Source: Cristatella mucedo (lineage: Eukaryota; Bryozoa; Phylactolaemata; Cristatellidae). From it: a DNA stretch of 64,000 nucleotides. The stretch is from positions 306,001-370,000 of the forward strand of contig WPIO01000107.1 in assembly GCA_009760855.2 (NCBI GenBank). The letters run 5' to 3'. The notes beneath the pieces were generated by a model. It worked only from the letters and a program-made list of their open reading frames with translations. It searched no databases and had not been told where the DNA came from. This document shows, one piece after another, positions 1,703 to 50,053 of the stretch; the stretch's first letter is position 1; every line of letters begins with the position of its first letter. The translations under genes were made by a program, and so were the position numbers.

Positions 1703-4700
1703 TAATCTCACACTAAGCGAAGAAACCGGAGCACAGATATTGGCAGCATTTCATGATTTGAGTAAGTATTTCCTATTTGATGTGCTGTAAATATATTCCT
1801 ACAGTGAACCTGACTTCATGTTTCGTCCTGCTCCCGTTTTTGTGTCTTAGACATCATTGTTGTTCTATGTAATGTAATGTATCTCCGTCAGTAACTCCAC
1901 AAAGTCATAAAGACCATGTGGGTGTTACGCAGGCGAGTTTTTTATAGAGCACTCACAGCCTAAGCGGCTTTCAGTACACATTCGGTAGCCAACAGACTTC
2001 GTCTCACGCAACAAAGAGAAAGTGGGAAGCATAGCAGAGTTAGGAGAGCAGTTGAGGTAGTGAGTAGCATAGAAGTAGCAGTTCAGGACCGCTGAAAAAG
2101 ATGTGCCATAGTCGGCAGTTGGAGAGTAGATGTCGTTGCGTAAGAATTGTGGAAGCGAGTTCCGCAGTCTAGGATCTGCAGAGCTAAAGCTTCTGTCGCC
2201 AACTGTCTTTAAGCGGAGGAATGGGACAGCTAATTTATTGTCCACACAGGACTTGAGGGCGCGAACAGGCTGAAACTGATGCAGCAGTTCAGCTAGGTAC
2301 GAAGGAGCCAAGCCGTGGCGGGCCTTGTGGGTCAGCGTAAGAACTTTGCTCTGTATCCTTTGCTCAACCGGCAACCATCCTAGCTTTTTCAGCAAAAGTG
2401 GCACGTGCTCAAACCGTTGGGACTTGAAGACAAATGTTAAATGATGCGTTGCAGAACCTAACAGCTCATCTGACCAAGCCAAACTATGTCCATGAAGCCT
2501 CGACTCAATCAATACTGATTAAAAAAGCGTGATATCTAAAAATTGTAATGCTATATTACAGCGAAACTACTTAGCAGGTATCAAGTTACCTTCGTCAGTC
2601 AGTGAGTGATACATACCAACAGCTAGCCCGAGGAGCTAACGGAAAGCATTGGCTGAGTATGCAGTGTAGTAGTAGTATCGAGAAAGCTAACTTAAGAGAG
2701 CATAATAGTGAGTTAGACTTCTTAGATGCATAGCGTATATTGTAAACATAAATACATTCAGCGTCTGACACTGTTAAACATTAGATGTGTAGGGCTCAGA
2801 AAATATTTCAATCTGCATAAACTTACAACTTTTCAAACTCACCAGTTTTTTTTAAACTAAATTAGTATTCATTTTTTGAGTAATTGTGTGCGTTATCGTT
2901 ACGAAGCAGCTGCCTGAATCTAAAGTTTACTGACTAACCATTTACCAATAAGATCTGTCTTTAAACTTGCAGCATTAACATCGCGAAATTAGTTAATTTG
3001 TGTGTGAATAGCATGACAAAGTATACGACGTCACGCTAAGGTATTGCGAGGATAGTAGTCGCATGCGGGAAGTACTGAAAAAACATAAAGCACGCTTGAC
3101 AAGGATAAAGAGCTTGACATTTGGACGAAAAAGACTGCTAAGAGTTGACTTGAAGTAAAGTTTGTAGTGGCTAAATTGTAAATTATCTTCTAAAGAGTTG
3201 GAGAATCGCCTTATTGGCTTTTATCACAGCTAACTGTAGACAAATAAGTTTAATCTGTCATAGATTTTCATCATACAACTAGAGTAAACAAGTTGAGTAT
3301 CCTAAACCCACTTAATTGCACTGATAAAGTTGACTCTGCATTCGTGTATATCTTGCATATGCCTGGGTGTAGCCTTTCTATTCACACTAAGGCCTTCGTG
3401 AAGGTAAAATTAAGTTTGGTTTTTGAAGACTAAAAGTAGGCTTAAAGGCATGAAATATGTTGACTGCATTTGACGTGTGGTGCCTTATCACCAGTGCCAT
3501 AAAAACTTACCTGTTGCAGGAGAACGGTAGGCAGATTTAGAGGTGACTGGTGGTAGGTGATATGCCGGTGTTGCATGATTTTAGAATTCTTGCTGGAGTA
3601 ATATTATCTGCTATCTTATTACCTATCTATCTTATTATTATCTTGCTCTCTTGAGAAGGCCTATGTTGACGTCTTATTTACTCCCTAGTAAAATTTTCAA
3701 GTACCAATTGATAACAAAAATTACCCATGCCAGAATAGTCCTGTGCACTCCTCTAGCTGCACTTCGTGTCAGTGGCTTGTGTACCTGAAATGCTGCTAAT
3801 TATCCAATAGAACTATAAAGCGAGTACCCGTGAATAAGTTAGGTACAGGTAGCTACATTTTCAGAGCAGGAAAACGTCTACACTCTCTATGGACGTTTCC
3901 TAGCACTAACGCAGGGATTCGCTTGATCTCACTTTGGTTCACATCTAAGTTGGTATGAACAGCCACTGAGACTCTTCTGTTACTATAAACATGTGGCTGC
4001 CATATCAGCTAGCCTTTATATTTAACTTTTGATCTATATACGATAAAGATTCTTTACTGCTGCATACGGTTTATAAAAATCCCTGCACCATTAACTTTTC
4101 GCAACAAGTACTGTGGTTGAGTGAACTTGCTGAGAATAATAGGTTTTTTTACGTGGAGCCTACAAACTACAGTCTACCTCTTACGGCAAAGTAAATGCCG
4201 TTAACGTATTCCTGTCCAGGGGTTGCTCTTAGCTACGGCAGTTGTCTTTCTTGTGCCGCACTCTTTGGAAGAGACAGCCAGCATAAACAAATTTCACCTA
4301 GCTGCACTAAAAATGTTTGCACCCTAGCGGCTGAATAGGTCATGCAAATTTATTTTCTCCACTTTTGCAAAGTTTTAGATGGTCCCAAATTTGCTCGAAA
4401 ATCTCGATTTGGTTAGTGAGTAGAAGTCTTGCAATAAGCAATCTCTTATTTCCCAGTGCAAGCACTGATACTTGCCATGAGTGTGACTTTTAATCCACAT
4501 CAAAGTAGCTGTTGAATCACGTAATCTTGTACTTATAACAATTGCACTTTAAGACTTGGACGACTTCGACTGGATCGAAGCAGCATATCTGACTAACATA
4601 TCGGTTTGTGTTGTGGGCAGCAGCTTTGTTCAAATTCTCTACAAACTGGGAAGGCAAGCAAAGGTTTCTTATAAAATGGAAAGCCGGTCTGAGTCAGAAT

Positions 4701-5739
4701 TCCTTCGTTTGCAGATAGTCTGAACAGAAACATCCAAGCTGGGCATGTCTCTTCGCATCACACGAAAGTCTTACGTCGTAGAACAAGCAGCTTCGGTCTC
4801 TACTACCACACATCTGAGCTTTCAAAACTAAAATGATTCCAATGAGACGGCCCGTGCTTAATTCATCCTATTGCATCAGCCTATTCAGTGCCTATAACAT
4901 CTTTCATCATGCCAAACACATTCTGTGCACAATGGGAATGGCATCTCTCTATTATAGAATTCGTTAATTTTTTATTTTGGTGGTATTTTGCAAGCAATAT
5001 GTACGGCTAAATTTTCTCTTAGTAGCTTAAATAAACCAACGGAACTAGTTACGATATCGGACAGTTTTCGATTTATTAACGGGTTACTTCTGCTCGATAA
5101 ATGAACATTTCGAGGTACTTTTGGAGGTATATATATGTGCAAAGCTGAAAATTCCACAAAGTATAACTACGGTCATCTCATTTCTTGGTTCAAGATCTGA
5201 ATGAGAAAAATTAAAGCTGGGTACCCGTCATCGGTCACTTTTATTATCGCACCGTGGAGTTTTGCCTAATCAACCACTACCGATACTGTCAACATTGTTG
5301 GTGTTTTGCCTACCCTTGGTGTGAATATGCTCTGCCTGATGCATTACTTTGATCGTAAATGTCCTCCTCTAAGTTGAAGCTGTCGATAGTTAAAAATGGC
5401 TTACCCAGTTTCGGGTGAATTGAATTCGATATTTTTGCAGGCCTCACTGGAGAGGAACAAGTTAATAAAGTGGCGATGTTAATCCGCAAAGGGATCGACG
5501 AAGAAAAGAAAAAAGCCCAAGCATTGCCCATATTAAAGGCAAAGAGCTTTCAGATGATGTCGAAACCGATTTTCGAGTATCAGTGGTGGCTCAGAGACAT
5601 TCCTTGCAAGCTCAGACGGAAGCGAATGCTGCGTAGAAACAGTCGCTGCCCGTGCTTATGTTTTGATGTAGCCAACTATGGGTTCGACGCTTTGAAGCTA
5701 ACATTCTCACTGGATGAGGAACACGGCGATCCAAAATAA
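1703..5739 (+). CDS. Gene copy A (partial): EQWW-family small protein, exons 2 and 3
   Basis: Unrecognised family. Exon 2 is 1703-1761 (59 bases), after acceptor TTTCAG and before donor GTAAGT. Read from its second base it encodes NLTLSEETGAQILAAFHDL and leaves one base in phase 1. Exon 3 is 5441-5739, after TTTTTGCAG; it begins with two bases that complete a Ser codon and ends at TAA 5737-5739. Exon 3 contains LPILKAKSFQ, then the family core EYQWWLRDIPCKLRRKR, then a divergent acidic tail. Splice phases match copies B and D exactly. Exon 1 (M-S-L) must lie outside the window; with it the protein would be 122 residues. A TATAAATAAACAC polyadenylation context follows at 5819. Intron 2 carries an F2 LINE absent from B and D. 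No signal peptide or membrane helix is visible. The role is unknown; many basic residues around the WW core might bind nucleic acid or a partner, but that is a guess. Whether it is still expressed cannot be judged from sequence. Confidence 0.68.
1865..2440 (-). mobile_element. LINE family F2 (CR1/L2 group), 5'-truncated copy in intron 2 of gene A
   Basis: The minus strand encodes the C-terminal region after the reverse transcriptase, with LGWLPVEQRIQSKVLTLTHK, then GDRSFSSADPRLRNSLPQFL and RETKSVGYRMCTESRLGCEC. Its 3' end runs to a GAGATACATTACATTACAT tail at 1865-1887, read on the minus strand. Introns of copies B (near 25075) and D (near 46815) continue uninterrupted at this place, so the element inserted into A after the duplications. 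The reading frame is still open for about 170 codons, so it is fairly young. It is 5'-truncated as usual for LINEs and cannot move by itself. Confidence 0.85.
2562..2577 (+). other. Conserved 16-base candidate microexon in intron 2 (copy A)
   Basis: CGAAACTACTTAGCAG lies between a TTACAG acceptor and a GTATCAAG donor. The same 16-base interval with the same borders occurs in copy B (25236-25251) and copy D (46996-47011). Sixteen bases do not preserve frame: joined between exons 2 and 3 it causes an early stop in every copy. It is either a regulated frame-breaking exon or conserved by chance. Confidence 0.3.
3024..3150 (+). other. Conserved segment in intron 2 of copy A, possible decayed exon
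   Basis: Aligns with 25695-25850 (B) and 47440-47575 (D) around GGTATT..GAGGA.AGTAGTCGCATG and GATAAAGAGCTTGA. In A, the frame that looks coding in B and D is broken by TAA at about 3088. If this was an exon, it is dead in A. Confidence 0.3.
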
Positions 5740-5820
5740 CGAGGCCGGAAACGAGCAGACAAGGGCGTTACCGGTATACATTTCGGTGGTATATGTAGTA
5801 AACGCTTGAATTTAGTTATA

Positions 5821-5826
5821 AATAAA
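5821..5826 (+). terminator. Polyadenylation signal, gene copy A
   Basis: AATAAA within TATAAATAAACACGAATGTCAC, 82 bases after the stop codon. Copies B (28072) and D (50163) have the same hexamer inside nearly the same surrounding sequence, so this marks the shared gene end. Confidence 0.75.
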
Positions 5827-5859
5827 CACGAATGTCACTTTTTTCGCACGAACTTATGT

Positions 5860-8300
5860 AAATGAGCTGCTACACCCAGACCTGAATTGCAATCCACTTC
5901 AATTAGTTTAAAATGTACTACAAATCAGCATCCCAAAGATCCAACAATATCTAATATCAAACTAAGCCAACTAGAAATGTACAAAAAACTTCGGGTGATT
6001 CGGCTCCATCTTTCTCACGAATTGCATTTAAATTAAATTGAACAGGCCAGGCAAGGCCAAGATCTAAATCAAAAAACAGTCCACCTCATTCCGCCACCCA
6101 AAACAGAAACCCTGTTCAAAACGCTAGTTTTTTTTATAAAAAATGCCAATACACTGTGCGATGATTGTACTGAAAGAGCTATCCTTGCATGCTCAACGCT
6201 GTACTTCTGCGAAGAAGGAAGATGAACTGCAATAGCCTGGCAAATGAAATAATTCAAAATCATCCTTGAAATTCATTCAAAGAGACTAGCAATAGATTCA
6301 GCCGAGGTCCAGTTTTTATTGCACATTAAATTAAAACGTCTTTCGCACTCATACACCCATAGTACCAAAACTGTTGCATCTTTACACTACTTTAATGCTC
6401 GAAAATTACTCAAAATTAAAAGAAAAATGTTGGCACTGCATTCTATAAATGAACAACCCATGCTTGAACAGCTGTCGCCAAGCTCTGATAGACATTCCTA
6501 ATAAGACCTGATTCATTTGAAGTGGAAACATGAATGCTCATTCAAATTTGAAGACCACTTCTTATCCTAATCCCTGCAATCAAGTGCAACGGCCTTGTCT
6601 CGCACCGGAATTCACCTCAAAACCTAGCAATCTACTGTAGCACGTGGCACAGCTACCATAATGCCAAATCTAACAGCTATAACTGTGATTGAACGCTGCT
6701 TTACTTTCTGGTAAGCGTCTACTCCCACCATTTCACTGTAATAGCCTCAACCATTCTTTAGCAATACACTGCAATGGTTTTGGACAGTACGTCAATCCAC
6801 CGTAACCTCTAGCCAAAAGACCTGAAAGTGTACACTTTGAAATCTAGCTATGATTGCAGGTTGCATCAATATTCGGTTGCAGCGGAATCGTACAATTTCA
6901 CTTCAATTGCCACGACCATTCTGCTGCAATGCATTTGAATTGACTGTGATTGCCCAAACCACTACTTTGCAATCGAAATTAATCTGAGACACAATTGCCC
7001 TTAAATCGGTTTCAAATGGTCCAAATTGTAACCCACTTTTAAAAGAAAGTTGGGTAAATTCAACATTATTACTTCAACTCATTGTGCTCGTGAGATCTTA
7101 AGCAATACATGGCAATCTTTGTCCACTGTTCGGCTTGAAGCGACAATCCATAATTTTTCGTGGCAAACCAACGACAAATTTGCCAAGCCAAGCTCCTATT
7201 TTCATTCCATGCATCATTTGGCTGCGTTTCAAGTATAACCTTAAGTTTTCAAGCTTTATTCGCCTGCTTAATGTTAACGATGTATGGCAATCGTCAGCAA
7301 CGATTGGAGCAAATACAGCAATCCATGAAGAATTGGCCAAATGGGATTAGCAAAAATGCAACATCTATTCCGCTTACAATGTATTTGTCTGGGCGCTTGA
7401 ATTGCATCAGGTATTGACATCGAGGCATGGCAACCGACGAAAAAGGCATAGTGAAATAGTCTAATCAATAACGAATAGGATACTTGTGCGGCCAAGGACT
7501 GGCCACAATCGTGGGCTCAAAACTAAATCTCTCGAACAGAGATTGAGTTCTCTTAGGGTAGGGTACGGAGAAATTAAGGTTATGGACCAACAGTTAGTGA
7601 GAGAAGCTGAAAGTTTTCTTAGTAATGCAGCACAGTGCAATACAAGTGAAACTGCATTCCTTTTTAAAACTTGGAAGATACAACCGAGAGCAGTTCACTT
7701 TAATTGAAGGCAATGATTTAACTGATACCCAAATAGGTTTCAAATTGGCTGGAAATCAGCTGTTGTCATTTTTAGTTATTATATCACTTAACATCCACTG
7801 TTCGAGCACTTACTTTCCTTGTCCAATTCAACCTTGGGCAGGACATGGGAGTTGACGGCAGTTACCCAACGCTATATGGCAGGTAGTCTATGATACAAAC
7901 AAAATCCAAGCTAGTTGGAGAAGATCAAAAGTTTCTTGTGTACAGCAGCGAGCTGTAATAACATTGCAACCACAACTTAGCAACCGATTGTTAACGTATA
8001 CTGAGAGAAATGCAGAGCAATATTGGGAAATGGCCTGGGAAAGTAAGGAATCTGTAATTATCCATTGATAACATTATTAACCACTTAAAAGGTCTCGAAG
8101 CTATTGGGCAAAATTCGGCAATGCCAGTCACCAATTAGGATATCGTATTCCGCCCATCACAGTCAATCAAATGTAAGTATTACAAAGCTAAATTCAAAAT
8201 GATGCATTGAATTGCAACTTTTTAATTGCCAAGTTTCAATACATATCATAACAATATTGCAATCAAAGCCTAGTCATCACCTTTGTTAGTCTTGAGGTTA
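5860..8300 (+). repeat. Highly diverged tandem repeat (about 170 bp period, TGCAAT-rich), 3' of gene A
   Basis: No gene is visible here. A motif like GCAATACACTGCAATGG recurs with loose spacing: GCAATCAAGTGCAACGG at 6575, GCAATACACTGCAATGG at 6761, GCTGCAATGC at 6924, GCAATACATGGCAATC at 7102, ACGATGTATGGCAATC at 7278. Longer context repeats too (CATTTCACTGTAATAGCCTCAACCATT near 6730, ATTTCACTTCAATTGCCACGACCATT near 6896). Steps are 155-187 bases. Monomers are strongly diverged, so the edges and copy number are approximate. Related sequence follows gene D, and lies inverted at 9990-12060. Confidence 0.5.
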
Positions 8301-8483
8301 GTACAACTGTATGTAACGGATTTGATTCGCTAAGGCTGTTATCACGAGTCTTATCCTGGTGTTAAAGAAGATGTGAAAGTAGGCCAGCCCCGAAGAATGA
8401 AGGGAGCTACATGCGTTTGACAGAACATTGAAGTCGACAGCATGTTGGACTTGGAACCAGTGCATGTCTGCGAACATTGGTTC

Positions 8484-8870
8484 GATGTACCTAAAATTCT
8501 TTGGAGACCATGAAATTAGTTCTCATGCTCCCAAAGCCTGAAACCTACTCCCGATTTTCGTCACAACATCCACTGACTGGACCACATTTAAAAAGAACTT
8601 AAGAGCACACCTGGTTAGAACAACATTTTGTGGTTTTCTGTGATTCTTCCTTCATGTGCTAATGAGTACGGACGCTGTGCATGCTGTCACTAACAACGCT
8701 TTAAATGCTCCTCCTGTGTATGCCACCCCTAACCATTTTATTTATTTTTTATCAAGCATGATATTACTCACCATTAAATCATCTTACCCTTTACAGCAAA
8801 TATAAAGAGTCTAGAAAAAGATTGAGTTCTCTGAGGGTGCTTTATTGAGTGCATTAGTATTATTATTAAT
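8484..8870 (+). mobile_element. LINE family F1, decayed 3' fragment
   Basis: Keeps the end of the ORF2 C-terminal domain (TTTGGAGACC..., CCCAAAGCCTG, ACCACATTTAAAAAGAACTTAA), the family 3' UTR with ATCAAGCATGATATTACTCACC, and the tail hairpin AGAGTCTAGAAAAAGATTGAGTTCTCTGAGGGTGCTTT followed by (ATT)n. Many substitutions mark it as old. Confidence 0.8.
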
Positions 8871-8879
8871 ATTGTTATT

Positions 8880-9455: not shown

Positions 9456-9459
9456 AGGT

Positions 9460-9640
9460 AGCATGCTTACCCTGTGATGTCAACCGTAGCTATGTCATTC
9501 ATTTTGTTTGTTTATCAAGCATGATTTTACTCACTGTTCAATTGCATTTCCCTGTAAATGTAATGTAAAGCACCTAGAGAGAGAGAGATTAAGTTCTCTG
9601 AGGGCGCTTTATCAAGTTCATTATTATTATTTTTATTAAG
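9460..9640 (+). mobile_element. LINE family F1, 3' UTR and tail only
   Basis: Has GCATGCTTACCCTGTG, TTGTTTGTTTATCAAGCATGATTTTACTCAC and the hairpin AAAGCACCTAGAGAGAG...TTCTCTGAGGGCGCTTT, then (ATT)n. No coding part remains. Confidence 0.8.
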
Positions 9641-20989: not shown

Positions 20990-21522
20990 AGTACTGGGCC
21001 GCATGGGAGATATGATCTCAAAGCAGCATCCCCATATGAGCTGATTTGATCTCACATCCGGAACGCCAGTGGTGTACAGTAATACGGCATTGAATGCTTC
21101 CAACTGTCCACCGCTGTCATAAAGACCTGTCTATATTAAGGTTTCTAAATTGACACTTTTTTGGGTTGTGGGCGTTTTTAGGCCCAACCTTCTTGGTTTC
21201 ACGTCGGCGAACCTGTGTCCAAGTGTTTACCACATTTAGGTCGCTAGCCAACTACAAGATTTATGCATTACCGTTAGTCATTGTGGGTCGGTTGAGACTG
21301 CCATCACTGCACGCGCTGCATAGTCGGCCCAGGTGTTATCAGATGTGAGCTCTCAAGCCGAGTCAGCACTGGAGTAGCTTCCGGAACCCTGGCCAGAAGG
21401 TTGGTTTGCGTATATCTATGGAAAGGGCTTAATTATTGTTATAGCAACTGGCTCGCGGCCATTTTCACCCACCGTCGATTCCCAGCTACTACCTGCACTA
21501 ACGGCAGAAAAGACACTGTACT
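20990..21522 (+). promoter_or_regulatory. Promoter and 5' UTR region of gene copy B, conserved with copy D
   Basis: Conserved with 42410-42879: GAGCTGATTTG, GTGGTGTACA, CATAAAGACCTG...ATTAAGG, GAGTAGCTTCCGGAA, then TATATCTATG (21411-21420) followed by AAAGGGC, then GCCATTTTCA (21458-21467). Spacing from TATATCTATG to GCCATTTTCA is 47 bases here and 42 in D. A TATA-like box with a start near GCCATTTTCA would give a 5' UTR of about 60 bases. A TATA box is usually about 30 bases from the start, so the exact start site is uncertain. Confidence 0.5.
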
Positions 21523-24500
21523 ATGAGTCTAAGGTAACTAATGTATGCCGCTTAGGTTGAATTATTATGATGAGAAAACACCAGGCAGTGAGCTGTCAAG
21601 GCAGGCTGTCGGCAGGTTTTCAACTCGCATGATAAAGCTTGTTAGTTGGGTTTTTGAAGCCATTTCAGGTCACATGCATTTGCAGGATCATGCGTGGGAA
21701 ATTCACATAAGCACACGAGTCTCTATTCGTTTAAAATGATAGCTATTCAGTAGGGAATGATAAATGCAAGCTTTGAGTGTAGCTTGCATTTGCAGGAAGC
21801 TGTTTTGTGGTAATGTGTGACGCCGGAAATTGGGGCCCTCTCTTAGACAGACTATCTCCATTGAGACAAGGGCTCAAAAATCGTTTACTGAAACGTACGC
21901 TCCCTAAGTAGCTAATTCCTAAGAATGTCAAGGTTAATAAAACTAATATATACTATAACCTCTGAAGGATCGATAGAGCTTGGCTGGTTATTTCTCGGCT
22001 GTTCGCTAGATGGCCCACTGAAATAGAAGCCGCGGTTGCAATGATTGCGAAGTAGGCTTTGTCATACGCAGCTGTTGCTGCACACTTAAGAAAAATGAAC
22101 CCATGTAATCAATGGACGTAAAAGTGATCAATATTATATTCCGAAGCGGAGGTAATTACTACAGTCATTCGTGCATTTTCGATTAGCCAAGACCTCGCTT
22201 CAGGATTAGTTGTGGCTCCATGAGGAAATAAAAGGCTGATTTGTCGATCATAGTTGCATTGCGACAAAAGAATGTGTATTGCTCTCACCTCGCTTGCAGC
22301 CGAGATTCAGGATTGCCCACCGCAGCATTCGAACCTAGTACCTCGGGGCCGATGTCGTGAAAACCAGCCGCCTTATCTAGTGAGCCATTTGGGCTCACCA
22401 AATGCTCCACCTGCAAGTTTGTTAGCTTCACGTGAAGGTTGAGTGCATCGGTTTTCATTTCTTTGGAAATTGGTACTTAAATCTAATATTCAGTGTTAGT
22501 GTGTATATTAGACCAGGGGCAAATCTACCTACACAGGACCCATCTGGTAAAACCGCACAAGGTTTGCAGAGATAACCAGGTTTTAGAGCCGTTTCTTTTT
22601 TATTCTGACGACAAGAAGGGATTTTTACAGTCTCCATTTACACGTAGACCTTGATCTGACCGCATTAGCTTGAATTACTTGTGTGCTGCTGCAGTGTGTC
22701 ATTTAGTTGCAAACTCAGCTAGGTGTAACTATTGCCTGTTTTCCTTTCTTTGGCTAAAGTTACTACATCTACCAATTAGTATGGTAAACTGCTTTGAAAT
22801 GAATGCAGTTTCAAGTCAATTTGTATTAATGAGTCGTACTTTGGTTACATAATAGGATGTTATCCCTCATAGCCCTCGTTTGAATATACTTTCCAAAACT
22901 CTTTACCAATTTTAAGAACTGCAATTCATAAAATATATATTGATGTGACAATTTATTGTTTCAATAACCGTGCACTATGATTTATTTATAATTGTTTCTG
23001 TCCTACTCGTATATACTTTACTAGGCATTGACTTATTTAAACCTTGCCCTCTGAATAGGACACCTACTTAAAACAATTATTTAGCTGGCCAAGCCACTCC
23101 CACTGAGAATTACACTTATCCCTGAAAAACTGTCAGCCCCTCGCCAAGTAAAGGGACGGTTTCAAAAGTCCTATATCGAGATAATTCATCAGTTTTGGCT
23201 CTCCTGACTCTACGAATGCGAAACATATTTCACCCTCGTGTTACCTCTGAGTTGGCCTAACTGGGAAAGTGTAGTCTGACTACAACCATGCCCGGTTCTA
23301 CGCTTTAGAGATGTTTCTGGAATATCTTCTGCAAGCTGGTGAATCCGTTGTTCTTCAACTGCATGCAGCCCAACATGTTTAGGCTGTCCTGCTGCTACGT
23401 AAAATTAGGCAGTTACAAAGACAGACATTTACTCAACTTTATAGTTGTAGCCGTAAGTTATAGATTAGCTAGTAGTGTTTGTCGCCATGTAGGTTTAGTG
23501 CTGATGGCCTTTGAGATTACCATTAGCATTTATTGAATAACTCCTTCCTTGCTGTGTCCGGCTTTATCCCTTACATGTAAGCCAGGCAGCCGGCTCCTCA
23601 CGCGAGCTCACAAAGTTCCTCACAGATGGCTTTCACTGTTCATATTCTACCCTAAAATGATATCCCAACATGAGTAAAATCTCACATGAGACTGTAGCAT
23701 AACTCTTAAGTGTTTTCTGGTTTCATCATGCAGACAAAAAATTACAGTCTCACTGCTTGCTGCCAACAGCGAATGACTCACTCAGAATGTATGCAAATTT
23801 GAAATATTAAAACCGAGAGCTGGGCATGATTCATCTCAAATTTAAGTACTGAATTGAGTTATTTGGGCCTTTCGGAGTCATTTCAAATCATGATTTGGTG
23901 CACATTTTCTTATTTTCATTGCACTCGACTCGATGAACCTCCAGCAGCTTGTTACACTCTCTAACTGAAACGGCCTGGTGGATTCTGCATTTAATTTTTT
24001 GTAATAGGGGAATGCACTTGAGTCTGTCTACATCCACGCAGATTCTATTCTTAACATTCATTATTACATTGACACATGTTCAAACGAACACATTTGCTAG
24101 CTCTACTGCCTAAAATGTTTATGAAAATAAATGCTTGCATTCCCTTAAGCTTCTACAGATGGTTAGCATACTGTTGGTGCTTGTGTATACACACTTAATA
24201 ATAAAAAATTTAAATCAACCCTGCGTTACTTTGCATGCCATCTACGATTGTATTTTGCGCTGGGATTTGTGTCTGTTCTTAATTTGAACTTGAGCTAGAT
24301 CAGCCAACGTAGCCCTGGGGGTGGTCATACCAGACTAGATGCACTCACTTTGGGACGATAAGCGTTCGTAGGATCGCCCTGTAACCCATTCCGTGCTGCA
24401 TCTGTAGAACGGTTTTCTGTACTTCATTGGTAGACGTGCTTGAGCACACCGGAGCAGCACGGAAATATGATCAATTGGCTGGTGGATTTTATTGAAAGCA

Positions 24501-27959: not shown

Positions 27960-28071
27960 AGCAATCACCTTCAATCCTCCGGATTACACATCAATCCAAA
28001 ATAGTATTGCTAGAAACGAGCTGACATTAGCATTGGATTAGATCTGTATTGAACGTGTGCTTCTACGTATA

Positions 28072-28077
28072 AATAAA
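28072..28077 (+). terminator. Polyadenylation signal, gene copy B
   Basis: AATAAA in TATAAATAAACATTCCTGTCAC, 113 bases after the stop; the same context as in copies A and D. Confidence 0.75.
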
Positions 28078-28269
28078 CATTCCTGTCACTGAGTGCACAA
28101 GGACTTATGCCAATGACCTTCAACCCCAAGGCCTGTACTGCAATTCACGATAATCCAAGGCGAGAACTTTCCTCAACGCTAAATCTTTGCTATGTTTACG
28201 GCAAACTGAAATAGCTGCAGAGTTTTGCCACAGCTGTCAGCAACTAAGTGCACAAGCCGGTATACCTTT

Positions 28270-32579: not shown

Positions 32580-35500
32580 TAAACAGATCTTATCTATCAG
32601 AGTCGGTTTGAGACCCAATCTGATAGCACGATAACCCACTGAAATGGAAGCTGCGGTTTCGATCATTAGCATAGTAGGCTTATATTATGAAGTAGTGGCT
32701 GCACATCATGAAAATAAAACCCATAAAGTCTATAAAAATAAAAGTGACTATTCCGATATACTCTTTTGAATATGATTAGGTCGGTCTTTTGAGCGTTTTT
32801 TGCGAGCCAAGCCAAGCTTCGGCCTCAGTGATATCTCGGGAAAATAATTTACTAGCTGATTTATCAGCCTCTTTTGAATTTCGACAGAAGACTATTTTCG
32901 ACTCTTGTCACTTTCCATAACTCAATTTCAACCTACGACCTCGGGACCAAGGTCGTGAAAACCAACGGCCGTTTATAGTATGCCATCACGGCAGGGACGT
33001 GAGTTAACTCTACCTTACCTCAAAAAAGTTTATTTGACTAACTTACTCTTAAGAATAGAATAACCACAATATCCCTTGCCCAGATCAATGCGGGCTTTAA
33101 GCTTCTATATTTGACGAGCAGAATTCCATATGTAAAGCACTTGGATGAAGAATTAAAGGGCCGTACGAATGACTAATTAGGACGAATCTAGACGTTTAAG
33201 TGGCAGAAATAGCCTCAATGCAAACCCTTTCTTTGCTTGGTTGTTCCAGGTTACGTGACCGTGCATCCTTGCACTAGAAGCATCATACAGGTATGCAATT
33301 TGAATGAACTTGTGGCTAAAGTATGCATTGATTATTAACCAATCTGACACATAAACTGTTGCTACATCTGAAAGTGTTTTAGCTTCACGAGGACGCTGAT
33401 TAGATTGATAGTCATTTCCTTCAGCTCCGACTTGCTGCAGTATTTAATAACGAGTAAGCAAGTGAAGTTTTTACGGGTTACTTATAAAACCAATAATCAA
33501 ATTTAACATGAACTGTTAGTGTGCATTGTAACACGGAGGACTAAGCTCTTTACACTGGAACAAGTAGGTCAAATTGGATTAAGCCTCCGGTGATTACCTG
33601 CTTCAAGAGCTGGTTTTGCTACTTCGATCACACGGTGGGTTTCTTGCATTTTATGTTGACTGTTTGCAGTTTTTATTCACTCGTAAAGCTTGAGTTGACT
33701 GCATTAATCTTAAGCATTTGTGTCCTGCTCCATTCGACAGTTAGCCACAAAGTAATCAAAACTTTTACGATCTTCCGCTTTCCTATATGCGTCTAAAAAT
33801 GCCTCAGATATCCATTCGCATGTTAAAATTATTGAAATTAGTGCTTCTAGATGATTCCTATTCATGAGTCATACTTTTCTGAAAAATCGGATGTTATCCC
33901 TTGTTGTTCTATTTTGAATATACTGCAGAGAAACTGTTCATCAATTTTGACTCGTTGATGCATAAATACATGCATTTCTGTGACGTTTGATCTTTTTTTA
34001 AACCGTGCATTAATTCATGTATATGCTTTCCTTTTTCCCACAACTCTAGGTTATACGACGTATTGACTAATTCAACCCTGACTCTTCTGAATAGAATACT
34101 CACTTAAAACTGTTTTCAGCCGGCTTAGCTCCTCGAATTCCCCGTTAGACTCGTGTTTGACGTGCGGCCGTCTCCTGGCCGAGTTCAGGTGCAGATTCCA
34201 TAGCTTTTATACATATAACCTCAGGCAGTCTAAGCTGTAATGATCTTTAAATGCAAAACCGGTTTTTACGTTTTTATCTACGAGTCTGGCTGACTCTTTA
34301 AGGACAGTACCGGTCCCGCGATGAATGACTGTCGTTGGCATACGCTCTGCTACCCGGCGATCTGTACTGCTAGCGGTGATAGAGGTTAAGGCTTTCCAGC
34401 TACTACGTAACTTTTGCAGTGAAATCGGCTGATATTTACTTCAATTTATAAACGTATTCAGAATATTTACTTCATCGATAAGTGCCAGTAGTTTTGTATC
34501 TTTACTGCTGACGGCATTCAAGACAACTATTAGCATTTATTGACTAACATTTTTTAACTTGTTACGATTTATCCTGCTTAAGTTTTTCTCGTGAAACTCA
34601 CGTGGCCACCTACAGGTGGCTTTGAAAGTTAATATGCTGCCCAGAAATGCCATCTGAATATTTATTGACAATTGGTGTACTTAACTATTGATTTTGCTAT
34701 AGCTTAATCACAGTCATAGCAAACTGCTGTATTAATGAATGATACCAACAGTAAATTTCTGACAGCTACTCATAATTTACCTCGAATTCGAATAATGAGT
34801 ACAGTCTTTTATGCGTTTGGCTGTTACATCAAAGTTATAGGTCGATAGTATTTTTCTCGATTTTCACAACGCTCAACTAGATGAATGTTGCTGTAATTGC
34901 TGGTTACATGCTTCATCTTTAATGGTTTGATTGAATCTGGATTTATTTTTAGTTAAATGTTAAATGCTATTAAGGATGTCTATTTCCACTCACACTCCAG
35001 GCTTAACATGCATGTTTACGTTTGAGATCATTAAGCGAACATATTTTTCTAAATGTAACGTCTAATTTTCTGAGAACATAAAATCTTGTGTTCACCTATA
35101 CTTGCACTGAGGATTAGCACACTGACGTCGATTAGCTAGTACACATGGAATCTTGGAAATGCATAACTACTTGGTATTCCACTTTCCTGAGCCCCACGTG
35201 TCAATTTTTGCAGTGGCAGTGATTGTATATTTTTATTGGACGTTCCAGCTATATCATATTACAGCCCGGTTTGTGGTGATACGTGACTGCATGCCGTCAC
35301 TTTGGGAAGATAAACTTTCGTAGGGTCGCTCTGGTAACTCATTCCGGGGTGCCTCTGTAAATGGCTTTTTGGTCCCTCACTTGCAGGTGTTCTTGGCCAC
35401 ACTAGAGTAGCAAGGATATGTGGGTAGGAAGGCTGGTGCATCTGAGTTAACTGATTCGGAGGTAAACAAGTCGAGATAATGCATCTCTTTGAAGGGAAAT

Positions 35501-35804
35501 TGAATCTGAAAGATTAAATCTTAGTGTGGCCTCTAAGCAAGTTAGGTATCTGTGGCGCGATTATAACGGTGCTAGTCATAATACCAGAAAAGCGAATTTA
35601 AGACAGTTAATTGAGATGTCGGCGGCGATCTGGCTGTGCTTTCATATCGGTGTTTTTGTTGGCCTGTATTCGTCCAACGTTCCTTATCTAGAGCTATTTT
35701 AAATTAAGAAGAACTTTTGCTCAGCGCTTACTATTTACTAAGTGCTCAAATAAATTGTCCAGTAACGGCGGACCTTTCAAACTGTAAGTTCTATGTTCTT
35801 CCAG
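32580..35804 (+). other. Intron 1 remnant of gene copy C
   Basis: Aligns with intron 1 of B from GATCGATAGAGC (21968) and of D: for example CACTGAAATGGAAGC.GCGGTT, the SINE-2 at the same place (32865-32998), TTCTAGATGATTCCTATTCATGAGTC and TATACTGCAGAGAAACT near 33920, and the RT relic near 35265-35485. Exon 1 and the promoter block of B and D are not found upstream; the homology is cut near 32580. Confidence 0.6.
32865..32998 (-). mobile_element. SINE-2, old copy in intron 1 of copy C
   Basis: ACGACCTCGGGACCAAGGTCGTGAAAACCAACGGCC and GCTGATTTATCAGCCTCTTTT mark it. Same place as in B and D. Confidence 0.65.
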
Positions 35805-35863
35805 TAAGAAGAGAGTTAGCAAACAACTCAGATGAGATACATTAGTAATATTTAGTGATTTAA
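35805..35863 (+). pseudogene. Gene copy C: isolated exon 2 with in-frame stop
   Basis: Exactly 59 bases between TTCCAG and GTAAGC, as in A, B and D, and alignable codon by codon (KKRVSKQLR, stop, DTLVIFSDL). The TGA at 35833-35835 stands where B and D have a Gly codon, so a single G-to-T change is enough to explain it. No exon 1 is seen upstream, and no QWW exon is seen between here and gene D. About 3.2 kb of recognisable intron 1 remains upstream. The fragment lies between diverged direct repeats at 31955-32480 and 35930-36470. It is best read as a dead copy. Its splice signals are intact while its reading frame is not. Confidence 0.65.
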
Positions 35864-41540: not shown

Positions 41541-41544
41541 TAAA

Positions 41545-42320: not shown

Positions 42321-42409
42321 TTTCTTGCAAGCTATTGCCATAGGATAATGTATAGTTAGACACGTAGAAATATGCCCTCGAGCAGGCAGGTAGTTGTTAT
42401 GCAGAAGCG

Positions 42410-42879
42410 GCATTGGTATATGAGCTGATTTGTGCTCCTAGCCGTAAGGCCGTTGGTGTACACCAGCGACACATCTTACTGCCCACAGTCTTCCACTTTT
42501 GTCACGAAGACTTGACTGCATTAAGGATACGGACTCGATATGTTCAATTATGAGCATTGTTTAGACTTGCAGCTTGTGTCGCCGTACCTGCGTTTATTCG
42601 AGTACCGTCTTAAAGTTGCTAGCTAGCCGCGCTACTACATTCAGACGTCAAGGTGAGTCGTCGCGCGTTGGTTGAGACTACCACGGCTACCAGTGCCGCG
42701 TTCTCTGACCGGACAGGAATCCGCAAGCCGCGTTAGTAACTGAGTAGCTTCCGGAAGTCTGGCCTAATGGCCAGTTCACATATATCTATGAAAAGGGCCA
42801 AAGGAGGTAGCCACTACTTAACGCCATTTTCAGTCTTTACTCGATTCGACGCTGCTCCCGGCAACAGTCACACTGAACT
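42410..42879 (+). promoter_or_regulatory. Promoter and 5' UTR region of gene copy D, conserved with copy B
   Basis: TATATCTATG at 42781-42790 followed by AAAGGGC, GCCATTTTCA at 42823-42832, and GAGTAGCTTCCGGAA near 42740, in the same order as in copy B. The bases just before ATG are CACACTGAACT here and GACACTGTACT in B. Confidence 0.5.
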
Positions 42880-45800
42880 ATGAGTCTAAGGTATCTAATT
42901 TGTATCACTTATTTTGAATTACTTTGATGCGCTACCATCAGGCAGAGTGCTATCTTGGCAGGGTGTTGTAAGTTTTCGCATTGTACGGTAGAGCTCTTGC
43001 AGGGAAGTCGGCGCTTGGTAGCCACTTCGCCCTGCATGCGTTGGCGAGGTCGGGCATTTTAAACTCTCATAAATGCACGAGGCTACTTTCTTGTAAAATT
43101 GCATTATTTAAGTAAGGCATCGGAAATGCAAGCGCTCAGTGTAGCGGGCCTTTGCAGGAAGCTCTTTTGCAGGTAAGGTGGGGGATTCCGGAAATTGGGG
43201 CCTGCTCGTGGGTGGGTCCTTTCCGTTAAGAATAGTGCATGGAAAACTTTTATTGTAGCACACATTCCCTAAGCAGCTACTTCCTAAGAATGTCACCATC
43301 CATAAAAACCAATAAAATGTATAGCCTCTAATGGATTACCAGAGCTTGGGTGGTATGGCTTGGCTGTCGAACGATTAGCTGCTGAAAAAGAAGCTACGGT
43401 TGCAAATGTTGAATAATTAGGCATTTTCTATGCAGCTGTTTCTGCACAATTATGCAAAATGAACCAATAAAGTTGGTGAAAGTAAAATTGACTATTAAAA
43501 ATATATTTTTGGAGGTAATTAAGTTGGTCTTGCAAGCATTTAACTGGAAGCCAAGCCCTGCTCAGGGCTCGGTGTTGGCTCGAGTAAAAAGCAAAGGATG
43601 ATTTATGAGCCTCTTTTTTAATTGCGCGAGTAGAGCCATTATTATTACTACCATCGCTTCAAGCGGCGATAATGGATGGCCAACCATATTAATCGAACCC
43701 ACAATCTGGGGACCAAGGTCGTAAAAAGCACAGGCATCACCTAGGGTGCCATTACGGCATGAGTCTGAAATCATTCTACCTCATCTGAAATTCCTTTATT
43801 TGAGTACTTCACTCAAATTTACAAGAGTAACCTTACTACCAACCCTCACCTAGACCGATGCCAATTAAATGCTCCCTACTTGTGATTAGCAGAAAGCAAT
43901 ATTTAAAATCCCTGGATAAGGAATGAGTTCTCCAAGGCCAATGTAGGAACAACTAAGAAGATATGTTTACACCTCAGAGAGGCAGGAATAGATCCGATAC
44001 GAACCCTTTCTATGCGTTGTTGATCCAGCTCTCCTGACTGTGCGTGCTTGCACTGAGAAATTTGATGGACGTACAGTGTCTGAACAAATGTTTAGTATGA
44101 GACTGCAATGATTATTAATTGACTTGACACATAAAAACCGGCTCCAAAAGCCAGTTTTTACTTTCACCTGTACGCCAAGTGCATTGGCATTCATTCTTTT
44201 ACTATAAGTTGTTGCAGTATTTAATAAGGACTGAGCAAGTGGAAATGGCAATAGTTGTTAATGAAATCGGTAATCATATCTAAGATCGACTTTTAGTGTG
44301 CATACAACACCGAGGGTGAAGCGACCTACACGTGAACAAACTAGCAAAACTGCACAACGCTTTCATTGACAACCAGGTTTAAGAGCTTGCTACTTTTCCT
44401 TGGGCGACCTAGCGAGTTTGTTACAGTTTCAATTGACACGTATATATTGAATTGACCACATTAACCTGAAGCTCTTCTGTGCTGCTGCATTGTAACAGTT
44501 CATGGCATGCTCATTTAGAGGTTACGATGGTCTGCTTTCCTAGTTATGGCTAAAACTACTGCAGATACCAATTTGTAGGCTAAAATCTATTAAATTAGTT
44601 CTTCTAGACGATTCCTATTCATCTATCCTTCTTTGCTTATAAAAATCCTGCGTTATCCTTCGTAGCATTCTTTTGAATAAACTGCAGAGAAACTCATCAA
44701 AATAAGACTCGCATGCGTTAGAATACACGCTTCTTTGACAGTTGATTGCTTGAGTAACTGTGAATTATTGTGTGTCTATCATGGCCTCAGTCCCACACCT
44801 CTAGGTTATGCGAGATAATAACTCCTTCAATCCTACGCCCTCTGAATAGGGCAAACCCACTTAGATTGGTTTTCCTGCCCGCCTATCCACTCGAACCCAG
44901 CATTTCATTTGTCCGTGATTTGCTTCCACCTCCTGGCATAGTAAATGTACAGCTTCTTAAGTTTATACACTGCTACCCCTAGTCAGTTTTAGCACTCCGG
45001 ACTCTTTAATTTCGAAACTCGAAGTTGCCTCTTGCTACTACTAGTTGGGATGACTGTTAAGTTATAGGCTGACTGCTCTAAGACCTTACTGGATCCCATG
45101 CTGTACTGACATTTCCGGTATAGGTCCTGCCAGCCTGGGATCTGTTTTGCCCGCTGCAAGCGCTGCCAGACTTTAAAGCTTTCTTGCTTCTACATAAAAT
45201 ACGACAGTTAGATCTGTTGGCCTTTACTTTACTTTATATGTGTAATCAGAATTTTTGGTTTATCCACTAGCGTCTGTCGTTCTGCATCTTATATGGTTTT
45301 GTATCTTTAATGCTGACAGCCTGCTCGACTAATGTTAGCTTTCCTTTAATAACTTCCTCTTTGCCGTGTCTGGATTAATCTGGTACAAGTAAGTCTGGCA
45401 CTCGGTTTTTCTTGTGGAACTCCCAAAGTTCCTCACATGTGGCTTGGATGGTTCAGATTGTGCCCAAACGCTTTCCAAAATTTAGTGAAATTTTGCATGT
45501 CATAGTAGCCTAGCTGCTAATTTTGTTGAAGCTTCATCCCACATCCAACCAATTACTGTATGACCACCTGGTGGACAAGCGACTGGTTCATAAAGAATGT
45601 GTTTGCATTTGACAAATTTGGATAAAATCCTGGAAAGCTGCAAATTATAAACCTTCCTTTTACATTCAATTACTGAAAATGGTTTTTAGGCATTTGGGAG
45701 TCAGTTGAAATTTGTGAGTTGGTACTAACTTTCTCGATTGTCACGACCCTCAACTGGGTGAATTTAAATCCATTGCCTTATGACATTTTTAATGGCGGGA

Positions 45801-48800
45801 TAAATATGCAATTAGTTTTCAGGATTGCTGTTGAGCCCATCTACATGTATGCACACTGTAGGCTGAGCATCAATATTTGCGATTACACTTATCATAGCAA
45901 AGGTATATTGCTAGGTGTATTGCCTAAATTTCTTTGAACAAGCTTTTTGCAGTTACACTTGCATAGAGGATTAGCATACTGCTGTCAACTGCAAGTACAC
46001 ACGGAAACTTACAAATGCATAGCTGCTTAACATGAGTTTTTGTGTGATCCACGATCGCATTTAGCATTGACAGTTGTTGACCTCTGTATTTGACTTTCCA
46101 TTGTATCAGGCAACATAGTCCAGCTAGTGGTGAAGCGTAACCGGGATGCCATCACTTTGGAAAGATCAGCTTTTGTAAGGTTGCTCTGCTAACCCCTTCC
46201 TGGATACATCTGTACGAGGGTTTGAAGTCCCTCACTGGTAGACGTCTTGTATGACACCAAAGACGAAAGGAAATTTGATAGGTGGTCTGGTGGATTTCAG
46301 TACAGCGATCTGGATGTCACTAACTCAAGATAATTCATTGCCTTGAAGTAAAATTGCACCCTAAAAATAAATCTTGGAAATGTATGTCAGCAAACTTGTT
46401 GCCAGTTGGAAAAGAATAAGAGTGCTTGTAATAGTGCCTTTAAAAGTTAATTGGAACTATTTTTTATATATTTGGGGTGATCTGGTCGTGCAGTCATAAT
46501 ACTGTCTTATCTGACCTTTATTCTTCCAACATTTCATATCTGAAATTATGTAGACTTGTGAAAAACTTTGCTAAATGTTAGCCGGTGACTAAGTGATCAA
46601 ATATAAGGCTCAGTAATTTTACCCATGTCAAGGAATATCTTCGATTTTGTTCCAGCAAGGTCGGAGGTTACGAAAAATTTCGAGGAGATATCTTGAAGGC
46701 ATTACATGATTTGAGTAAGTATTCCACAACGTATTGTGTGCCAATATTTTTCAAATAAATCTGACCTAATGGTGTGTCTGGCATCAGTAGTTTTATTTGT
46801 GTATTAGGCATCTTGTTAAATTTCAAATGCTGCACGTTGAAACCTATTAGCTCGTTTGACAAAGTGCATTATTTTTTTCTAAACCATGTGTAACTGTCTC
46901 CATGAAGCTTTTAAACTGATAAATAGTTTTGTGATAATCACTTAAGAGTTGTAAAAGGTTTTTGGCTATTGTATTTTTTTTCTGCTACCTTACAGCAAAG
47001 CTACTTATTTGGTGTAAAATTGCCTTAGTTTTTTGCAATATACCAGCAGCTATCAAGAAGACCTAATCAAAAGCCTGGGCTTATTCTGCAGTGTAATAGC
47101 AGTATCCAGCTAGCTAGCTTAAGAGAGCTGAACAGCTAGTAAGATTTCTCGGACATTTAGCAGACATTTTAAAATAAATACATTTAGCTTCTTATTTAGT
47201 GAAATATTATAAATTTACCATTCAATGAAGTCTTCGATCATTTGAAACTTCAAAATGTACCTGCTGGTTTTTCGAAACTAAATTGCTGCCTTTTTTGAAT
47301 TTGTTTGTCATAGTCATTAGAAAACAGCAGACTGACTTTAAATTCTAATGGCGACCCATATATAAATAAGATCTTTCTTCAAGTTCGCAATAGCCGAATC
47401 ACGAAATTCCCTGTGTCGGTTGGTGAACAGTGTGATTAAGTATGCAATAGTACTTTGAAGTATTTTGAGGAAAGTAGTCGCATGCAAGGAACTTTGAAGA
47501 AGCAATCAGCATGTGCAACATGGATAAAGAGCTTGACCTTGGAACAAGCAAGCCTACTGACACTCCTACTTGAATTTAAGTTATGGGGAGCTAAGTTTTT
47601 GCATCTTCTTCATAAGACTCGTGGGAAAGCCTTAGTGGCTTCCAATCCAGCTATAATTAAAGACATATAAGGCACACATTTTTACAGTATAACTTTTGTA
47701 AGAAAGAGTGAGCTTCCTAAATCCACTGAAAACATGTGATAAAGAGTAGGCTGCATTTGTTTATACTTTGCATATGCCTGAGCGGTTATTGGGGCTTTTT
47801 TATTCAAGCTAAGGCCTACGTCATAGTGAGATTGAGTTATGAGTGTGAGCCCAATTCATATGCCGACAAAGAGGTGAACTATTTTGACTTGATACGACAC
47901 CCGGTACCTTGAGATTAGTATTATAATAACCTACTCGTTCCAGCAGAGCACTAGATAGATTTAGAGGAGACTGGTGGTATAGGATATGCTGTAGCTGCAT
48001 GCGTCTGTAAAGCTTGTTAAGGCAATAGTATGCTTTTTGAAGCAATCGTGTGTTCGTGGCTTATTCACTCCTGACTCAAATCTGCAAAGTATGGAGAGGT
48101 AAAACTAATTATTCAAGCCAGAATGCTGGATGAGGTATGGCTGTGCCGTGCTCTTGCTGCTTTATACCAACTGGTTTTTGCTTTGAATAATGCTGATCAT
48201 TGCCAAAATAGAACTTGGAAGTTGGGAATCTGTGGCTGACGAAGGTACAGGTAGCTACACTTCCTGTGGAGGGAAACGTCTACTCTCCTATTGGGTGTGT
48301 CCTCACTTGGACAATGGTGTTAGCTCGATCGCACTTTGGATATCATCAGAGTGATATCGACAGCCATTTAGGCTCTCTTGTTACTTTATGAATGCTGCTG
48401 TCAAATCAGCTACCTTTCACATTTAACGGCGCTTTATAAATGGTAAAGACCGTGAATCGCAAACCCTTGCACCTTCAACTTTTGGCCAAAAGCAGCTGTA
48501 GCTGAATGAACTTTCTGATGATGACTTTTTATGTGTTACGTAAAAGCTATATTCTACCTCTTTAAGAAAAGCAAGTGTCTTTAATTTATTCCTGTCTACG
48601 GGTTGCTCTTGGCTACGGAGGTCATCGATTCTAGTGTGACACTCTGTGCAGGAGTCAGCCAACCCTAAAAAAGATGTCACCTACCTGCGAGTCACTTTGA
48701 TGTATCCTCGCATTTAAATGTTAATATAGAAGTTTACTTTTTCACTTTGGAAATATTCTGGCGAGTTTCAAATTAGCTAGCTTTTTTTAATTCAGTTAGT

Positions 48801-48972
48801 AATTTGAAGACTTGCAAACTGAAATTACTTATTTCCCAGCCCTTACAGGTGATACTTGCCATGAATAATCTTTTGTAGCCACGTAAATACAGTTGTTACA
48901 TCAAGTAATATTTTATTTTACATGCTTGCATGTGAAGATTCGTGAATAAATTAAAGTCATGTACTCAACTAA

Positions 48973-49068
<96 letters not shown>

Positions 49069-50053
49069 TCGTGGGCAGGTGCTTTTCCAAATCTTCCACA
49101 TACTTCCAAAGGAGGAAAAAGTTACTAATAAAAGAGAGGCCAGTCTGATTCAGGATTCCTTCGTCAGCAGGTGGTCTGAACATTAAAATTCAATTTAAAA
49201 TCAGGCTTTCCATATCCAAATCACAGGAATTGTATGATTGTTTCTCTCAACTGCATGAATTGATTAAAAGTTATTTTGCTGATTTATTGAAAGCAATTTT
49301 TTTGCAGATCATCAGTTTCATATTGCCTTGAATTTACGAACTGGCTAATATTTAATCTCAGACAAGGACTGATATACACGTTGATTATTTCTCCTTGATA
49401 GCTGATACTAATAAGGAGTTTTAAAGCTGAAATCTCTGTATGCGATCTCTGCCTTCATCCATTTCTCTATCCAAAGTCTAGTGAGCAAAGGTGATGCTTC
49501 TTACTCACCATCGGTCACTTTTACAAGCGTGCCATCGCGTGTTGCTGAATTTACTAGCCCTATTAATGGCTGTCGTGTCAATGCTTGTTTCCTTTCACTT
49601 GCCATTATGGAATGCTGCTCTGCCTAATAGGCAGCTTTGATTATGAATGTCCTCGTATCAAATGAACCACTTGGTATTTCAAAACGCTAGACCTCTTTTG
49701 GATTATGATTAATTGAAAGCAAAATGTTTGCAGGCATCACTAAACAGGAGCGCCACAAAAAGTTGACGACAATAGTGAATGAACTGATTTTGGAAGTCGA
49801 TACAGAAATAGTAAATGCCGAATTAGTAGACGACGAAGAAACAGAAACGCAAAGGCCACTGAATTTGCCTATCTTGAAGTCAAAAGACTTTCAATTGATG
49901 CTAAAACCAATGTGTGAGGAGCAGTGGTGGCTGAAAAATATGATCTGTAAACTCCGACTGAAGCGAATGATGCGTATGAAAAACAACGCCCAGTGCTTTG
50001 GTTTTGCCACAGGCTTTTCTGATTTGACCAATTGCATGATGCCCCTTCAATAG
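42880..50053 (+). CDS. Gene copy D: EQWW-family small protein, three exons, 129 residues
   Basis: Unrecognised family. Exon 1 is 42880-42890 (ATG AGT CTA AG, donor GTATCT). Exon 2 is 46656-46714, after TTCCAG and before GTAAGT, encoding [19 protein letters not shown]. Exon 3 is 49734-50053, after TTTGCAG, stop TAG. Both split codons encode Ser. Lengths 11+59+320 give 130 codons with stop. Compared with B the spacer is longer and acidic (VDDEETETQ), followed by [10 protein letters not shown] and the core [20 protein letters not shown]; the tail is longer and ends CMMPLQ. No signal peptide or membrane segment. Intron 1 is about 3.8 kb, with an old SINE-2; intron 2 is about 3.0 kb, with a long (TA)n. 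Exons are more alike than the introns around them, including silent changes in the core. Function unknown. Pseudogene status cannot be excluded without transcripts, but three copies with open frames argue against it. Confidence 0.72.
43590..43765 (-). mobile_element. SINE-2, old copy in intron 1 of gene D
   Basis: GGTTCGATTAATATGG (degraded B box) and CTTGGTCCCCAGATTGTGG on the minus strand, with AATGGCACCCTAGGTGATGCC as the A-box region. Same place as in B and C. Confidence 0.7.
46130..46345 (-). mobile_element. Decayed reverse-transcriptase relic in intron 1 (copy D)
   Basis: Homologous to 24300-24560 and 35265-35485 (CATCACTTTGG.AAGATCAGCTTT.GTA, CCCTCACTGGTAGACGT, GGTGGATTTCAGT). Evidence for reverse transcriptase comes mainly from copy B. 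Confidence 0.35.
46996..47011 (+). other. Conserved 16-base candidate microexon in intron 2 (copy D)
   Basis: CAAAGCTACTTATTTG after TTACAG and before GTGTAA. The donor is weaker than in A and B. Inclusion would give an early TAA in exon 3. Confidence 0.25.
47440..47670 (+). other. Conserved segment in intron 2 (copy D) with two open frames
   Basis: One frame, from 47455, is open for 71 codons (starts [16 protein letters not shown]) and matches copy A's RYCEDSSRMREVLKKH. The other frame, near 47490-47570, matches copy B's DKELELGTS stretch. Only one at most can be coding. B has a stop in the first frame and A has a stop in the second. Possibly an alternative or lost exon. Confidence 0.3.
48972..49065. 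repeat. (TA)n microsatellite in intron 2 of gene D
   Basis: About 47 TA units with one C interruption near 48991. The aligned place in copy A (near 4597) has only a few bases (ACATAT before GTGGGCAG), so it expanded in D. Confidence 0.97.

What the first reader, a model, noticed from the sequence alone, without database searches (positions are those of the whole stretch)
1703..50053. Tandem array of an unrecognised three-exon gene family (copies A, B, C, D)
Four copies on one strand share exon sizes, splice phases and 3' ends. Phases are 2 after exon 1 and 1 after exon 2 wherever visible, exon 2 is exactly 59 bases in all four, and the joined frames of B and D are open end to end. The proteins (117-129 residues) match no family that I know. 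Keeping three open copies amid such transposon decay suggests function. That they are genes is inferred from conservation; what they do is unknown.
Basis: partly seen in the sequence, partly recalled or inferred. Interest (0 to 1): 0.9.

Follow-up and report, generated by a model that had tools for sequence, protein, structure and literature searches.

The report
Small tandem gene family, function unknown
An invertebrate chromosome carries three neighbouring copies of a small three-exon gene that look like working genes and matched no protein family in the libraries searched, with dead copies of the same gene nearby.

Summary
Copies A, B and D are complete three-exon gene models (122, 117, 129 residues). 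A's first exon lies 1.8 kb outside the window; all three first exons read ATGAGTCTAAG|GTA behind a shared promoter-like block. Exon 2 is 59 nt in four of four copies. C is a dead fragment: no exon 1, exon 3 or 3' end found, and a stop in exon 2.

Coding is supported. In exon 2 and the exon 3 core only the predicted frame is open in all three copies. The 38-codon core has pN/pS 0.38 against 0.90 expected without selection. Exon 2 and the flanks of exon 3 show no significant constraint.

No convincing relative was found in Pfam, NCBIfam, PHROGs, PDB sequences or viral contigs. Structure prediction was unreliable (pLDDT 55). No eukaryotic protein database was available, so orphan status is untested.

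Beyond the finding: the shared 3' end is an old dispersed repeat in which the AATAAA probably arose; and 110-116 kb beyond D lie about 13 tandem 412-bp units derived from exon 3, beside a dead exon 3.

Verdict: a real, probably functional small gene family; function unresolved.

The parts
1..5903 (+). duplicated unit A (its 5' part, with promoter and exon 1, lies outside the window from about -2305)
   Evidence: self-comparison of C8:286001-400000
1703..1761 (+). A exon 2, 59 nt, acceptor TTTCAG, donor TGA|GTAAGT
   Evidence: exon 1 (ATGAGTCTAAG) at -1832..-1822 = C8:304168-304178
5441..5739 (+). A exon 3, coding to stop
5524..5637 (+). A conserved core (38 codons)
   Evidence: pN/pS
5821..5826 (+). 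A AATAAA signal, aligned with the repeat-embedded signal of D; A's own blastn match to the repeat starts at 5832
21039..28157 (+). duplicated unit B
21355..21522 (+). B promoter-like block and 5' UTR; CTTCCGGAA (Ets-like, name recalled) and TATATCTATG conserved in A, B and D
   Evidence: three places in the genome
21523..21533 (+). B coding part of exon 1 (MSL + AG)
24852..24910 (+). B exon 2, 59 nt
27676..27959 (+). B exon 3, coding to stop
27792..27905 (+). B conserved core (38 codons)
28072..28077 (+). B AATAAA signal, aligned with the repeat-embedded signal of D; B's own match to the repeat starts at 28080
32626..35863 (+). unit C, truncated at both ends (dead fragment)
35805..35863 (+). 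C exon 2 relic, 59 nt, one in-frame stop
42724..50248 (+). duplicated unit D
42880..42890 (+). D coding part of exon 1 (MSL + AG)
46656..46714 (+). D exon 2, 59 nt
49734..50053 (+). D exon 3, coding to stop
49865..49978 (+). D conserved core (38 codons)
50099..50550 (+). dispersed repeat in D's 3' UTR and beyond; AATAAA at 50163-50168

Best explanation
A, B and D are protein-coding paralogues made by old tandem segmental duplication and kept under birth-and-death evolution. Each is transcribed from its own promoter, spliced from three exons and ended at an AATAAA that probably arose inside a repeat inserted after the stop codon before the duplications. Each makes a small, non-secreted protein: MSLS, two short amphipathic helical stretches (exon 2 and the start of exon 3), a variable linker, and a conserved tryptophan-basic core. 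Shown from sequence: gene structure, open frames, selection on the core, dead relatives. Inferred: expression, use of the AATAAA, helices, intracellular location. Guessed (about 0.3): the conserved core docks one constant partner (nucleic acid or a helix-binding protein), while the fast-changing helices give each copy its own partner, as in a small adaptor.
For: Complete models with canonical splice sites, in-frame stops upstream of the ATG in 3 of 3, open frames. Core pN/pS 0.38 versus neutral 0.90 (0 of 1500 simulations as low); all 99 ungapped codons 0.60 versus 0.88, P 0.0013. In exon 2 and core only the predicted frame is open in 3 of 3; core pN/pS is lowest in the sense frame. Promoter/exon 1 block 62% and core 61% three-way identical against 52% overall. 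Promoter and exon 2 flank occur at 3 places each, exon 3 protein at 7 and 8. Relatives that lost parts show stops or truncation: C, E, G, 412-bp array.
Against: Exon 2, the first part of exon 3 and its end are less alike (44%, 39%, 34%) than the 52% overall, and some non-coding 40-bp windows (up to 75%) exceed the core. Exon 2 pN/pS is 0.86, not different from neutral, and an antisense frame of exon 2 scores lower (0.68); in the first 59 nt of exon 3 one antisense frame is open in all three too. C-terminal ends differ in every copy. Only three sequences carry the test. AlphaFold models are unreliable (pLDDT 55.6 and 55.0). No transcript, no orthologue and no second species was available.
Confidence: 0.8

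Rival explanations
1. Recently dead genes: the family was functional through most of its divergence but the copies are now unexpressed pseudogenes or nearly so.
For: Heavy repeat load; C, E, G and the 412-bp array look dead; exon 2 and the C-terminus show no significant constraint.
Against: Three of three full-length copies keep frame, splice sites, start and AATAAA; simulated neutral lineages keep 90 codons open in only 3-5%.
Confidence: 0.12
2. Non-coding or chance frames in a segmental duplication: the exons are alignable only because the whole 8 kb unit is.
For: Introns align at 66-69% over the unit; several non-coding 40-bp windows are more conserved than any exon.
Against: Frame-specific openness and pN/pS in the core; splice sites and upstream stops in register.
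Confidence: 0.04
3. A domesticated or carried transposon gene.
For: The sequence from about 46 nt after D's stop codon onward is a dispersed repeat: 40 of 312 candidates scored and matched, 39 of them other than D itself.
Against: The detectable repeat match starts after the stop codon (50099 against 50053). Promoter and exon 2 flank occur at 3 places each, all on this contig; exon 3 protein at 7 and 8 places, 3 and 4 of them on this contig and 4 on C265 and C185. No transposon or viral family matches.
Confidence: 0.03

Closest known systems
Lineage-restricted (orphan) tandem gene families with birth-and-death evolution (general class, recalled)
   Same: Small multi-exon genes, tandem copies, live copies among dead ones, fast flanks round a short conserved core
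   Different: Restriction to a lineage could not be tested here; no known member shares its sequence in the libraries searched
Three-exon tandem families such as conotoxin genes (recalled)
   Same: Three exons, short, tandem, parts diverging as fast as introns
   Different: No signal-like start (MSLS), no constant cysteine framework, and here the conserved part is in exon 3; not filed there
Polyadenylation sites that arose in transposon sequence (recalled; one review seen only as a search listing, PMC8615635)
   Same: AATAAA lies in repeat-derived sequence shared by the gene copies
   Different: Inferred from sequence only; no mapped 3' end

Membership tests
Protein-coding gene family (paralogues) | Open joined frame with conserved splice phases in several copies | tested here: met
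   A, B, D: 3 of 3; C not
Protein-coding gene family (paralogues) | Selection on the encoded protein | tested here: met
   core yes; exon 2 not distinguishable from neutral
Protein-coding gene family (paralogues) | Spliced transcripts | not testable with these tools
   no RNA data
Any family in Pfam, NCBIfam, PHROGs, PDB | Convincing sequence match | tested here: not met
   best: SgrT E 0.019 and 0.014 (below its cut-off), HydF 0.21, VirB4 0.0073, phrog_16421 0.19, PDB 0.89 and 0.054; each family matched one member only (the PDB 0.054 hit is a profile match). One search scanned exon 2+3 proteins; 44, 49 and 50 scanned exon 3 pieces only
Lineage-restricted (orphan) genes | No homologue outside the lineage | not testable with these tools
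   no eukaryotic genome other than the window's own was searchable
Transposon protein | Exon 3 repeated across the genome or matching a transposon family | tested here: not met
   7 and 8 places; no transposon family
Secreted toxin-like three-exon genes | N-terminal signal peptide and cysteine framework | tested here: not met
   proteins start MSLS followed by charged sequence; cysteines differ in number between copies (read by eye; no predictor run)

The most novel reading that the evidence does not exclude
A protein family new to science, whose genes end at a poly(A) signal evolved inside an old repeat, and whose discarded exon 3 seeded a 412-bp tandem satellite-like array 110 kb away: one locus that shows a small gene being duplicated, re-terminated by a repeat, and turned into satellite DNA.
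Probability: 0.4. Interest if true: 0.55.

Novelty: new member of a known kind. Interest (0 to 1): 0.4.

Why it matters
If expressed, these would be small genes of unknown function that the libraries searched here do not describe, and the locus shows live copies, dead copies and an exon-derived tandem array on one contig. That makes the fate of a small gene family directly readable. The protein's function is open, so the interest is moderate.

Tried and rejected
Searches for a known family: Pfam, NCBIfam, PHROGs, PDB sequences, viral contigs (51; 62 pattern matches, 0 confirmed). Only weak hits, no family matching more than one member; rejected as chance.

Structure: exon 3 of B and of D, each with a three-sequence alignment, gave pLDDT 55.6 and 55.0, with helices at B 3-19 and 66-79, D 3-26 and 72-83 (numbered from the first full codon of exon 3). 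No fold search was run, since such models give meaningless matches.

Positive selection: exons less alike than introns suggested it, but the 3' UTR is equally low and pN/pS is below 1 in each part tested; not claimed.

Calmodulin-type binding of the W-basic stretch was considered from memory and not tested; only a hydrophobic-moment scan was run.

Species: the 21-kb mitochondrial contig C688 has AGR, ATA and AAA codons in COX1 where I recall Ser, Met and Lys (invertebrate code), and, with genes other than COX1 named by eye, nad1-nad6-cob-nad4L-nad4-nad5 on one strand, which I recall as a chiton-type lophotrochozoan order. Species not identified. The first translation was in the wrong frame or strand and was discarded.

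tRNA and Rfam scans of the window: 0 and 0. Of the 28 open frames listed (exon 3 of A and D among them), 10 others were scanned with Pfam; 1 matched, a reverse transcriptase. Paper searches gave listings with the starts of abstracts only; no paper was opened.

Full report
What is there. The window is C8:306001-370000 of a 572-Mb, 688-contig animal genome. A unit of about 8 kb is repeated on the + strand: A (-2305 to 5903), B (21039-28157), C (32626 to about 35863) and D (42724-50248). Negative numbers lie upstream of the window. The introns still align at 66-69% identity, so the units are old tandem segmental duplications. Over 2441 four-way columns the tree is A,B against C,D, support 96, with a longer branch for C (0.305 against 0.21-0.23). 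On that tree the usable relative-rate tests are C against D: chi2 12.2 with A and 3.7 with B as outgroup; other rows of that call use a sister copy as outgroup or lack a proper one and are not used, and A against D with B also gives 11.4, so rates vary anyway.

Gene model. Exon 1 contributes ATGAGTCTAAG before GTA at -1832 (A), 21523 (B) and 42880 (D); these are the only three occurrences of ATGAGTCTAAGG on the + strand of 114 kb, and the block round it matches three places in the genome. Upstream stands a block with CTTCCGGAA and TATATCTATG in all three (motif names recalled). Exon 2 is 59 nt in 4 of 4 copies. Exon 3 begins after TTTGCAG and ends at 5739, 27959 and 50053. The phases are 2 and 1. 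In-frame stops lie 60, 24 and 6 nt before the ATG. Proteins: 122, 117 and 129 residues, pI 8.9, 9.9 and 7.7.

Is it coding? In exon 2 and in the exon 3 core only the predicted frame of six is open in all three copies; in the first 59 nt of exon 3 the predicted frame and one antisense frame are. The core has its lowest pN/pS in the sense frame, 0.44 over 40 codons (next 0.65, antisense); exon 2 does not (sense 0.86, one antisense 0.68). Against neutral simulation: core of 38 codons 0.38 versus 0.90, none of 1500 as low; all 99 ungapped codons 0.60 versus 0.88, P 0.0013; exon 2 0.86, P 0.46; exon 2 plus start of exon 3 0.74, P 0.16; C-terminal part 0.70, P 0.13. NG86 omega: A-B 0.39, A-D 0.47, B-D 0.51. 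Neutral simulation keeps 90 codons open in 5.4, 4.8 and 3.1% of lineages; it takes a living copy as ancestor and indel sizes that I chose. Length differences in the exon 3 linker are net multiples of three although single gaps are not.

Against. Three-way identity is 52% over the whole unit, 44% in exon 2, 39% at the start of exon 3, 61% in the core, 34% at its end and 40% in the 3' UTR. So constraint is limited to the core, and some non-coding windows (up to 75% over 40 bp) exceed it. AlphaFold gave no usable fold.

Relatives in the same genome. Exon 3 protein finds 7 places with B and 8 with D. Besides A, B and D: E on contigs C265 and C185, which look like two versions of one region (long stretches 88-99% identical); its exon 3 is split by an insert with a 114-bp duplication, C185 has a stop that C265 lacks, and no convincing exon 2 or promoter match was found in 30 kb of each. 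The eighth place led, on C8 116 kb beyond D, to G (about 471.8 kb): acceptor TTTGCAG and a degraded exon 3 with stops. Just upstream of G, about 465.8-471.3 kb, are about 13 tandem units of about 412 bp. The consensus of 14 windows matches exon 3 of D (E 8e-9 against this one sequence; best match 37.0 bits, best of 100 shuffles 18.9) but holds a frameshift and stops. A search with two units found matches only in this array (5 of 5). This looks like a dead exon 3 amplified into a tandem array. A search with the exon 2 flank of D found A, B and D and not C, so decayed copies can be missed.

3' end. DNA from the AATAAA region onward matches elsewhere in the genome. With D's 50060-50560, 40 of 312 candidates were scored and matched, one being D itself; 11 of the 39 others start upstream of the AATAAA, the earliest at 50099, 46 nt after the stop codon. 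In A and B the match itself starts 3 to 6 nt after the AATAAA (5832, 28080), so the embedding rests on D and on the alignment of A and B with D. Three of three gene copies read TATAAATAAACA where 6 of 6 inspected repeat copies lack AATAAA; in 3 of these 6 the BLAST match spans the place, in the other 3 it was reached by extending the alignment. So the signal probably arose inside the repeat before the gene duplications.

Mechanism. Shown: gene structure and selection on the core. Inferred: transcription, splicing, use of the AATAAA, helices, intracellular protein (no signal-like start; no predictor run). Guessed: a small adaptor whose W-W-basic core binds a constant partner and whose helices diverge between copies; probability about 0.3.

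What is known. No convincing relative in Pfam, NCBIfam, PHROGs, PDB sequences or viral contigs. The claim that no family is known goes no further than these. Paper searches returned listings only. The host is an invertebrate by its mitochondrial code; a lophotrochozoan is likely from recalled gene order.

Verdict. Real and probably functional genes, ordinary in kind, unusual in their record of decay. Confidence 0.8 in the gene family, 0.3 in the proposed mode of action.

Noticed in passing
window 50099-50550 (also 28080-28157, 5832-6040): Old dispersed repeat at the gene copies' 3' end; AATAAA present in 3 of 3 gene copies and absent from 6 of 6 inspected repeat copies.
   Followed up: partly
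L058 2786-8264 (C8:465.8-471.3 kb): About 13 tandem units of about 412 bp whose consensus matches exon 3 with a frameshift and stops; a genome search with two units matched only this array.
   Followed up: partly
L058 8790-9020 (C8:471.8-472.0 kb): Degraded exon 3 copy G with intact-looking acceptor, next to the tandem array.
   Followed up: yes
L017 6052-7225 (C265:16052-17225) and C185:139628-141474: Copy E: exon 3 split by an insert flanked by a 114-bp duplication; one contig has an in-frame TAG the other lacks.
   Followed up: yes
window 53866-54990: Reverse transcriptase fragment (RVT_1, E 4.8e-14), LINE-like; its 3' part recurs in the window in families of 7 and 8 copies.
   Followed up: no
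window 1867-2431: Repeat inside intron 2 of A, 95-97% identical to 39 other places (40 of 5251 candidates scored), so a recent insertion in an old unit.
   Followed up: no
window 32626-35863: Non-coding sequence of dead copy C has a longer branch than that of A, B and D (relative-rate C against D chi2 12.2 and 3.7); cause unknown.
   Followed up: partly
L036 and L037 (C688): 21-kb mitochondrial contig with invertebrate code; the same frames recur at about 10.87-12.5 kb and 12.98-14.6 kb, and inverted at about 2.5-4.1 kb.
   Followed up: no
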